Assembly: GCA_036971615.1 (NCBI GenBank)
Contig: JAYKKR010000005.1
Span: 1,364,001-1,428,000 of the forward strand
Source of the DNA: Amyloporia xantha
Taxonomy: Eukaryota > Basidiomycota > Agaricomycetes > Polyporales > Adustoporiaceae
Direction of reading: 5' to 3'
DNA: 64,000 nucleotides
The position numbers and the translations under genes are program-made. Shown here in pieces: positions 15,668 to 56,842 of this stretch (position 1 is the first letter of the stretch; each line of letters starts with the position of its first letter). Under the pieces are notes generated by a model. That model saw only the letters and a list, made by a program, of their open reading frames with translations, was not told the DNA's origin and did no database searches.

Positions 15668-15675
15668 TATAAATA
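15668..15675 (+). promoter_or_regulatory. TATA box in front of the foldback array
   Basis: TATAAATA within CGTATAAATACCCC, about 120 bp before the first hairpin unit. No convincing protein-coding gene starts downstream, so it may drive a non-coding transcript. A near-identical box precedes the second hairpin-repeat locus at 38036. Confidence 0.55.
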
Positions 15676-15787
15676 CCCCATCTCACACCCACTTCTTAAC
15701 ATCAGTTCCTCCTTCGCCTCTTCAACCTCAGCAACGTCAAACTTGTTCACCGGTGAGCAAATTACACCCAATTTCGCCCTCACATAC

Positions 15788-16503
15788 ATGGACGTCCATT
15801 CATGCCTTCCCTTGACGATTGAATCAGGAAGTCAATCTTCCTAATTCCATCGTGAGGGGGAGTCATGGATGGACGTCTATTTTCACTTTTTCTTCTCGGG
15901 GCGTCCGTGTATGCCTTCCCTTGACGATTGAATCAGAAGTCAACCCCTCTGATTCCATCGTGACGGGGAGTCATTCACGGACGCCCCTTCTCTTTCGCCT
16001 CGCTGAGGCGTCAGTGCAAGTCTTTCCTTGACGATTGAATCAGGAAGTCAACCTTCCTAATTCCATCGTCAGGGAGAGCCCTCCACTGACGCCTCCTTTC
16101 CTTCACCTTTCACCTTCACTAGGATGTCCGGGCATTCCTTCCCTTGACGATTGAATCAGAAAGTCTGTCTTCCTGATTCACTCGTGAGGGGGAGTAGTGC
16201 GCGGACACTTCACCCCTTTCTGTTCCTTCTCTTTATTATGGTGTCTGTACACGCCTCTCCTTGACGATTGAATCAGGAAGTCAACCTCCCTGATTCCATC
16301 GTGAGGGGGAGTCGTGTACAGATGCTCTTTATTCTCCTTTGGCATTATCCACCGTGACATACGATTTGAACCTGATGAGCAGCTTGGCGGTGGACATTTC
16401 TCCTTCACATAGCGGCGTCCGTCTGGATCTTCCCTTGACGATTGAATCAGGAAGTCGATCTTCCTGAATCGCTCGTGACGGGGAGTTAGGCACGGATGCG
16501 CGT
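15788..16503 (+). repeat. Array of six foldback (hairpin) units, possible non-coding RNA locus
   Basis: Six units share an inner stem: CTTGACGATTGAATCAGGAA on the left and a complementary TTCCTGATTCCATCGTGAGG type arm on the right, with a loop of about 6 nt. Left arms start at 15811, 15920, 16027, 16143, 16260 and 16434, so spacing is about 107-117 bp (174 for the last). Outer arms of about 12-16 nt differ between units but remain complementary within a unit. Examples are GACGTCCAT with ATGGACGTC in unit 1, GGCGTCCGTG with CACGGACGCC in unit 2, GGCGTCAGTG with CACTGACGCC in unit 3 and CTGTACACG with CGTGTACAG in unit 5. Short open frames cross the array but change from unit to unit, so coding is unlikely. 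It lies between the two ADH copies. Confidence 0.8.
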
Positions 16504-16771
16504 CTGTTCTTTCATTACGCCGTATAGCAATTCATGGCCATATGAATGCTTTTCTTGCTTTGATTATTGTGTATGGAATCATGCGTGCTACGTATTTCAT
16601 TGCCTCGCCGCGTGTAAGTGCATAGATCTGCGCTTCATATTATTCCTTTCGGCACTGTCCTTATGATCAACATCCTGAGAGCGCCGGTCTACATACAATC
16701 ACATGCTTTACGATAAAACGGGCGTAATACATTCGGATTACAGTTCAGCTTGTGCTAAAGAGCTTCTTACC

Positions 16772-38335: not shown

Positions 38336-38595
38336 GAGCACATATTCTACACCTCGTATCTCGTGCGAGTGTGTTCGTGTAGCTTCTCCACTGTCACGAC
38401 ATGAAGCACATATTCTACACCTCGTAACCCGTGCGAGTGTGTGCGTGTAGCTTCTCCACTGTCACGACATGAAGCACATATTCTACACCTCGTAACCCGT
38501 GCGAGTGTGTGCGTGTAGCTTCTCCACTGTCACGACATGAAGCACATATTCAACACCTCGTATCCCGTGCGAGTGTGGTTCCTGGAGCTTCACAT
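38336..38595 (+). repeat. Four tandem units of about 68 bp with hairpin potential
   Basis: Units begin at about 38336, 38403, 38471 and 38539. Units 2 and 3 look identical; units 1 and 4 diverge slightly. Within a unit, GAAGC pairs with GCTTC, CTACAC with GTGTAG and CTCG with CGAG, leaving a small loop (TAACCCGTG) and a bulge. The spacer CTCCACTGTCACGACAT joins the units. No sustained open frame. A possible non-coding transcript driven by the TATA at 38036. Confidence 0.75.
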
Positions 38596-56393: not shown

Positions 56394-56842
56394 TGTTGTG
56401 GCTTCGGTTAGTGGTGGTCGGGAGTTGTGTTTGCTGATGCAGTCTGTATCGAGGTGGCGCGTTTCAACAGACACTTTAGTATCGACCAGTCTTGCAAATT
56501 GTGCTAGATGAATCTGCACGACGTCGTCAGCAATGATTTGACGACTCGTCAGCCTTTAGTAGACGGGGAAGGTGGAGCAGCGAGCTGTTACAAGGTCTAC
56601 TCGGCGTTGGAAGTAGAAAGGACACGTACAATATGTATCCAAAAGGTTTACGGGTCAAAGGCCAGTCTAACAGCAGAAGTTTGGGATGGCCCCGTCGGTG
56701 GATGGTGGGACTCTGAGCTCGGCCTCTGAGCTTGCCCTCGAGGCCGCGTTCAGACCCGTCGGCCACGCGGTTATCTTATCTCCGCAAATAAGGATCTGCT
56801 GCCGCGGCCCGACTCGGTGGCCTTCTCGGTATCTTTACTTAG
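56394..56842. other. Intergenic
   Basis: Promoter side of the disordered-protein gene, up to repeat copy B. Nothing else seen. Confidence 0.5.

What the first reader, a model, noticed from the sequence alone, without database searches (positions are those of the whole stretch)
15788..16503. TATA-led array of six foldback units whose outer stems covary
Seen directly: six units share a constant inner stem (CTTGACGATTGAATCAGGAA with its partner arm), while the outer arms differ between units yet stay complementary within each. Unit 1 pairs GACGTCCAT with ATGGACGTC, unit 2 GGCGTCCGTG with CACGGACGCC, unit 3 GGCGTCAGTG with CACTGACGCC, unit 5 CTGTACACG with CGTGTACAG. A C-to-A change in the left arm of unit 3 is matched by G-to-T on the right. 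Units 4 and 6 pair more weakly. Paired changes suggest the hairpin itself is maintained, as in a polycistronic small-RNA precursor with variable payload arms on a fixed scaffold. An alternative is a tandemly amplified foldback element with arm-to-arm gene conversion. It lies between duplicated ADH genes behind a TATA box.
Basis: partly seen in the sequence, partly recalled or inferred. Interest (0 to 1): 0.87.

Follow-up and report, generated by a model that had tools for sequence, protein, structure and literature searches.

The report
Fungal microRNA-like hairpin array with targets
Six repeated RNA hairpins in a fungus share a nearly identical 22-letter arm that is complementary to a site found 130-175 letters after a TATA-like promoter box in twenty mostly dissimilar stretches of the same genome, so they likely form a microRNA-like switch that would act on those predicted transcripts together with a second hairpin gene.

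Summary
In detail: six foldbacks at 15788-16503, each far more stable than shuffles, outer stems covarying, behind one TATA box between two ADH genes. The interpretation needs turning round: the payload is likely the constant inner 5' arm, not the variable outer arms. The predicted guide UUGACGAUUGAAUCAGGAAGUC is complementary to a 20-nt site (M1) in 21 examined units on contigs C3/C49/C60 of the same genome; a TATAAA (18) or CATAAA (2) box lies 132-174 nt upstream in 20 of 21, against 0 of 12 stray matches. In 18 of 21 a second motif (M2) follows 530-1524 nt downstream. M2 with up to 2 mismatches occurs 36 times genome-wide: 35 on these contigs, and once as the complement of the 5' arm of another TATA-led hairpin (C34). 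The next C34 hairpin matches a third site (M3) with a TATA box in 7 of 8 clustered copies and 0 of 9 strays; the one after it gave no such family. No shared protein was found in the units. Best reading: a fungal two-site microRNA-like system resembling plant TAS loci. Pairing is well supported by sequence; processing, cleavage and secondary siRNAs are inferred. No small-RNA, expression or cross-species data were available.

The parts
15668..15675 (+). TATA box (TATAAATA) of the array
   Evidence: Only TATA[AT]A on the + strand between 15109 and 16700; 120 nt before the first hairpin
15700..16550 (+). predicted single primary transcript with six hairpins (ends inferred)
   Evidence: All six hairpins in the MFE structure, z -17; longest open stretch on this strand 71 codons
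15788..15880 (+). hairpin unit 1
   Evidence: -61.0 kcal/mol, z -11.4
15898..15987 (+). hairpin unit 2
   Evidence: -58.9 kcal/mol, z -9.3
16005..16095 (+). hairpin unit 3
   Evidence: -57.4 kcal/mol, z -10.3
16122..16211 (+). hairpin unit 4
   Evidence: -53.3 kcal/mol, z -7.9
16240..16326 (+). hairpin unit 5
   Evidence: -56.4 kcal/mol, z -9.8
16412..16503 (+). hairpin unit 6
   Evidence: -49.2 kcal/mol, z -4.7
15812..15833 (+). predicted 22-nt 5' arm guide, unit 1 (UUGACGAUUGAAUCAGGAAGUC)
   Evidence: complementary to M1 sites; position; ends inferred
15921..15942 (+). predicted guide, unit 2 (one base shorter after CAG; A at position 17)
16028..16049 (+). predicted guide, unit 3 (same 22 letters as unit 1)
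16144..16165 (+). predicted guide, unit 4 (A at position 17, pairs with the U found in 17 of 21 sites)
16261..16282 (+). predicted guide, unit 5 (same 22 letters as unit 1)
16435..16456 (+). predicted guide, unit 6 (same 22 letters as unit 1)

Best explanation
The array is a TATA-led run of six hairpins whose near-identical inner 5' arm is complementary to a site (M1) near the predicted start of about twenty other transcription units, and it is likely the precursor of a 22-nt microRNA-like guide that would direct Argonaute to those transcripts. A second, unlinked TATA-led hairpin gene (C34) has a 5' arm exactly complementary to a second motif (M2) 0.5-1.5 kb further down most of the same units. 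Inferred mechanism: Dicer cuts both precursors; the two guides bind and probably cleave each unit RNA at M1 and M2; one of the several RdRPs likely copies the stretch between the sites and Dicer makes secondary siRNAs from it, so that the diverged middle of each unit would be the real silencing payload, as in plant TAS loci. Shown: hairpins, covariation, complementarity, order and spacing of M1 and M2, TATA spacing, no shared protein found, Argonaute, Dicer and RdRP genes present. Inferred: transcription, processing, the exact guide ends, cleavage, secondary siRNAs and what they would hit. I put guide-site pairing at about 0.8 and the secondary-siRNA step at about 0.45.
For: Hairpins and covariation. 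Guide arm near-invariant, star arm variable. M1: 42 genome hits at up to 3 mismatches, 9 in the array, 21 on C3/C49/C60, 12 elsewhere; reversed-pattern control 2. Of 21 M1 units in fetched stretches TATAAA lies upstream in 18, CATAAA in 2, none in 1, at -132 to -174; same test on the 12 strays 0 of 12; background 4% for TATA[AT]A, 7% for the wider set. Shared 11-mers in at least 5 of 14 units were only M1 and M2 (23 words; 0 in 20 resamples). M2 downstream on the same strand in 18 of 21; upstream 3, opposite strand 2. M2 at up to 2 mismatches: 36 hits, 35 on C3/C49/C60, 1 in the C34 hairpin, which folds at -44.0 kcal/mol, z -5.0, with a TATA box 126 nt before its first paired base. Further prediction met: the complement of the next C34 hairpin's 5' arm has TATAAATA upstream in 7 of 8 clustered copies and 0 of 9 strays. 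9 of 210 unit pairs are similar outside the motifs. In the two most diverged pairs compared M1 keeps 20/20 and 19/20 and M2 17/18 and 16/18, against 82% and 68% in the middle. Argonaute (6 places), Dicer dimer domain (3), RdRP (7), places grouped by me.
Against: No expression, small-RNA, degradome or cross-species data. 3 of 21 units lack M2. One diverged pair (C3_271222 and C49_65397) has M1 17/20 with the middle at 90%. M3 units showed no second shared site in the stretches fetched. The third C34 hairpin gave 23 hits besides itself (control 2), on many contigs, with TATA[AT]A upstream in 0 of 23 and the wider set in 1 of 23: no family for the arm tested. The M3 string alone is not above its control (18 against 16) and the eighth clustered M3 copy (C14) has GATAAATA, not TATA. 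Hairpins also fold on the other strand, some as well or better. The first ATG after the box is in one frame with M1 in 13 of 20 units and with M3 in 7 of 7, which hints at a short translated peptide. A 3.7-kb stretch over two units matched only C3 and C49 at E 0.001, so no target of secondary siRNAs is known. The arm asymmetry is only p 0.03.
Confidence: 0.5

Rival explanations
1. Ordinary microRNA-like silencing: the guides pair with M1, M2 and M3 as above but simply repress families of short-ORF genes; there are no secondary siRNAs. The site sits in the first codons of a short, fast-evolving protein, as some plant microRNAs sit on coding motifs of gene families (recalled).
For: First ATG is 22-118 nt upstream of M1 and in frame with it in 13 of 20 units, and in 7 of 7 M3 units examined. 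M1 units with no M2, and M3 units with one site in the stretch fetched, exist.
Against: Best spliced frames are 14-184 aa and unrelated over 25 units tried, counterparts included; substitutions between copies show no consistent codon phase and several indels are not multiples of three; 0 of 10 unit-region ORFs passed a Pfam cut-off. M1 also keeps most synonymous positions (column counts). It leaves the fixed order of M1 and M2 unexplained.
Confidence: 0.32
2. The hairpins are siRNA precursors of another kind or protein-binding RNA elements, and M1/M2/M3 are promoter-proximal or RNA-binding motifs that share sequence with them for another reason.
For: M1 and M3 keep a narrow distance to the TATA box, as a downstream promoter element might.
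Against: Three motifs are each complementary to a hairpin 5' arm, from two loci on different contigs. M2 is not at a fixed distance (530-1524 nt from M1). At guide position 17 most sites keep a U, which a G in the guide tolerates as G-U in RNA.
Confidence: 0.1
3. A tandemly amplified foldback element with arm-to-arm conversion and no RNA function.
For: Head-to-tail units 107-174 nt apart.
Against: No other copy found in the genome; G-U 16 against A-C 2 in the outer stem; complementary sites on other contigs with promoter spacing.
Confidence: 0.03

Closest known systems
Plant TAS3 / two-hit tasiRNA loci (PMC6572396, passages read)
   Same: Transcripts without a recognised protein that carry two small-RNA sites flanking a variable middle; short ORF near the 5' site (PMC12127299, passages, reports small ORFs on TAS RNAs); RdRP and Dicer genes present.
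   Different: Two different guides instead of one; 18 two-site units in the stretches fetched; the middle is mostly not alike between units; the 5' site is conserved at guide positions 10-11, whereas the 5' site of Arabidopsis TAS3 is reported as not cleavable. No secondary siRNA shown.
Fungal microRNA-like RNAs (milRNAs), e.g. Coprinopsis cinerea (PMC6145500, passages) and the 2022 re-analysis (PMC9757828, passages)
   Same: Hairpin precursor in a genome with Dicer and Argonaute genes.
   Different: Six head-to-tail copies of one guide, and a large set of near-perfect sites. The words cluster, polycistron, phasi and tasiRNA do not occur at a word start in the main text of PMC9757828.
Predicted phasiRNA loci of Sclerotinia sclerotiorum (PMC10544508 and PMC6315951, passages read)
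   Same: Claim of secondary siRNAs from fungal RNAs.
   Different: There the loci were called from reads by phasing tools and the passages I read name no trigger hairpin with its site; here triggers and sites are visible in the genome but no reads were seen.

Membership tests
microRNA-like precursor (milRNA) | stable single hairpin with the guide in one arm | tested here: met
   6 of 6 units, z -4.7 to -11.4
microRNA-like precursor (milRNA) | guide arm more conserved than star arm and stem base | tested here: met
   inner stem 2 against 11 minor-letter cells; outer stem 25 against 25; p 0.03 only
microRNA-like precursor (milRNA) | precisely cut guide and star reads with 2-nt overhangs, Dicer-dependent | not testable with these tools
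   no small-RNA data
microRNA-like precursor (milRNA) | complementary targets above chance | tested here: met
   21 clustered hits, reversed pattern 2 in the whole genome; box upstream in 20 of 21 units, 0 of 12 strays
TAS / PHAS two-hit locus | two small-RNA sites flanking the siRNA-producing stretch | tested here: inconclusive
   M1 then M2, same strand, in 18 of 21; that the middle makes siRNA is untested
TAS / PHAS two-hit locus | one and the same miRNA at both sites (TAS3 and miR390) | tested here: not met
   two different guides from hairpin loci on different contigs
TAS / PHAS two-hit locus | noncoding precursor | tested here: inconclusive
   no shared protein found, no codon phase but an ATG in frame with the site in 13 of 20
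TAS / PHAS two-hit locus | RdRP-dependent phased siRNAs | not testable with these tools
   RdRP domains at about 7 places; no reads
Rfam families | match above gathering score | tested here: not met
   0 in the window
foldback / MITE element | dispersed copies | tested here: not met
   all 7 matches to unit 1 lie within the array

The most novel reading that the evidence does not exclude
Fungi evolved their own two-hit tasiRNA system: two unlinked hairpin genes, one a six-copy array, feed two guides to a large clan of fast-diverging noncoding transcripts whose middles are RdRP-copied into secondary siRNAs, and a neighbouring hairpin drives a second clan with a single site.
Probability: 0.4. 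Interest if true: 0.95.

Novelty: new variant of a known kind. Interest (0 to 1): 0.86.

Why it matters
Clear, conserved targets are hard to name for fungal microRNA-like RNAs (my reading of the passages, which rest on predicted targets). Here triggers and sites identify each other from the genome alone, in a form that one small-RNA and one degradome library could settle. If the unit RNAs make secondary siRNAs, trigger-and-amplifier silencing, known from plants, would have a counterpart in fungi with its triggers in hand.

Tried and rejected
Rfam at relaxed threshold: 7 matches up to E 10, best E 0.1, all below their gathering scores; taken as chance. Variable outer arms as payload: not supported by anything found, but I did not search the genome for complements of the outer arms. 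Protein-coding units: 10 ORFs in or near units gave nothing above a Pfam cut-off and a spliced-frame search gave short unrelated frames. Third C34 hairpin: one arm tested; 24 hits (1 is itself) against 2 for its control, spread over many contigs; none of the other 23 has TATA[AT]A in the expected range, 1 has CATAAA. Relatives elsewhere: the M1 19-mer in GTDB genomes gave 4 bacterial or archaeal hits, about what my own estimate of chance gives; M2 in IMG/VR gave 2 (no chance estimate made). I did not read those six loci. The guide and site strings occur in 0 papers of the held library. The one protein search did not name the organism.

Full report
Observation. The six foldbacks are real and not a chance product: for each, 0 of 200 shuffles fold as well, the whole 851-nt stretch folds with all six hairpins, 8 of 39 stem pairs changed on both sides while staying paired, and in the outer stem G-U pairs (16 cells) far outnumber A-C mismatches (2), which suggests that pairing is kept in the + strand RNA; the inner stem shows no such preference (5 against 6), and units 2 and 3 fold at least as well on the minus strand. 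One TATAAATA box (15668) precedes unit 1 by 120 nt and none lies between units. ADH_N domains lie on each side on the minus strand.

Which arm matters. In the inner stem the 5' arm is almost invariant and the 3' arm is not (2 against 11 minor-letter cells, p 0.03), the usual sign of a guide and its star. The outer arms vary equally on both sides (25 and 25) while pairing is kept: likely scaffold, not payload. Four of the six predicted 22-nt guides are identical; units 2 and 4 differ near position 17.

The sites. I searched the genome (46.8 Mb, 60 contigs, unnamed) with the reverse complement of the arm. Of 42 hits at up to 3 mismatches, 9 are the array itself (6 guide arms, 3 star arms), 21 lie on contigs C3, C49 and C60, 12 are scattered; the reversed pattern gives 2. 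C49 carries counterparts of C3 units (five pairs compared, 94-99% alike in the middle) in inverted order, so it is probably another haplotype or a duplicate; the 21 hits are therefore not independent. In the stretches that I fetched (C3 25-55, 270-290, 322-352 and 366-376 kb; C49 and C60 pieces) one search counts 21 M1 units with up to 4 mismatches: 17 on C3, 3 on C49, 1 on C60. I left out the C49 counterparts of C3 units from this count, but C49_65397 is still 88% like C3_271222. A TATAAA box lies in 18, CATAAA in 2, none in 1, 132-174 nt upstream. The 12 scattered matches have neither in 0 of 12 exceptions, that is 0 of 12 carry a box; random positions carry one in 4% (TATA[AT]A) or 7% (wider set). 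Column counts over the 21 sites follow the guide UUGACGAUUGAAUCAGGAAGUC: positions 2-16 are kept in 18-21 of 21; position 17 is U in 17, a G-U pair with four of the guides and an A-U pair with those of units 2 and 4; position 1 is kept in 16.

The second site. Eleven-letter words shared by at least 5 of 14 units were only M1 and a second motif, M2. M2 follows M1 on the same strand at 530-1524 nt in 18 of 21 units, against 3 upstream and 2 on the other strand, which may be neighbouring units. Genome-wide, M2 with up to 2 mismatches occurs 36 times: 18 on C3, 16 on C49, 1 on C60, and 1 on C34; a further 34 hits with 3 mismatches are scattered (reversed pattern 20). At C34 the sequence is one arm of a hairpin; on the strand that has a TATA box (C34:383136, 126 nt before the first paired base) the 5' arm reads UAUGGAGAUGUGGUACAAG, the exact complement of M2. 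The other strand folds somewhat less well there (-38.4 against -44.0). So a motif found in the units led to a second hairpin gene of similar build.

A prediction tested. Further along that strand of C34 lie two more hairpins (z -5.8 and -5.1). The complement of the first one's 5' arm has 18 hits (control 16), so the string alone proves nothing; but of the 17 besides itself, 7 of the 8 clustered ones on C11 (6), C13 and C14 have TATAAATA 121-141 nt upstream, the C14 copy has GATAAATA at -109, and the 9 scattered ones have none. Two of the eight are near-identical duplicates and two more share the same variant string. The second hairpin gave 23 hits besides itself (control 2) but no TATA family: 0 of 23, or 1 of 23 with the wider set.

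What the units are. Outside the motifs 9 of 210 unit pairs are alike. Between copies substitutions show no consistent codon phase and several indels break the frame, Pfam finds nothing above a cut-off in 10 ORFs of the unit regions, and spliced frames are short and unrelated. Yet the first ATG lies just upstream of the site and in frame with it in 13 of 20 M1 units and 7 of 7 M3 units examined, so a short translated frame over the site is likely. TAS RNAs of Arabidopsis also carry small ORFs (PMC12127299, passages). That the sites are kept while nearly all else drifts argues that being targeted is useful to the units (inference).

Mechanism. Argonaute, Dicer and RdRP domains are present. The arrangement fits a two-hit trigger (PMC6572396, passages), so I commit to a TAS-like reading at 0.5, with plain repression as the main rival. 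Nothing here shows transcription, cleavage or secondary siRNAs.

Known or new. No paper in the held library has the guide or site strings. phasiRNAs have been predicted from reads in Sclerotinia. Literature searches on fungal phasiRNA, secondary siRNA and milRNA listed no fungal locus with named trigger hairpins and two sites, as far as the listings and the passages named show; the lists were capped. The organism is not identified; DUF6535 and a fungal kinase family near the units suggest a basidiomycete (recalled).

Noticed in passing
G000 C3:288162-289346 (-), 339377-340327 (+), 370880-371596 (+), 325755-326444 (-): Four of the ten longest ORFs in the fetched C3 stretches are DUF6535 proteins; the last three lie 1.7-1.9 kb upstream of an M1 unit on the same strand.
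   Followed up: partly
G000 C34:382310-382211 (-): Third hairpin of the C34 locus (z -5.1) with no TATA-led set of complementary sites for the arm tested.
   Followed up: partly
G000 C60:262947 (+) and C60:270692 (+): An M1 site and an M2 site on the same strand 7.7 kb apart; possibly one unit split by an insertion or two decayed units.
   Followed up: no
window 56681-56780 (+): Another strong single hairpin (-55.6 kcal/mol) found in the window scan.
   Followed up: no
window 16349-16393: The spacing between units 5 and 6 is about 60 nt longer than the others and the spacer holds CCACCG...CGGTGG; it folds no better than shuffles (z 0.42).
   Followed up: partly
window 38337-38577: 68-bp tandem repeat, 3.5 copies, 97% alike.
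   Followed up: no
G000 C3:45003-49211 (-): Copia-type retrotransposon ORF of 1403 codons near the unit at C3:51434; observed only.
   Followed up: no
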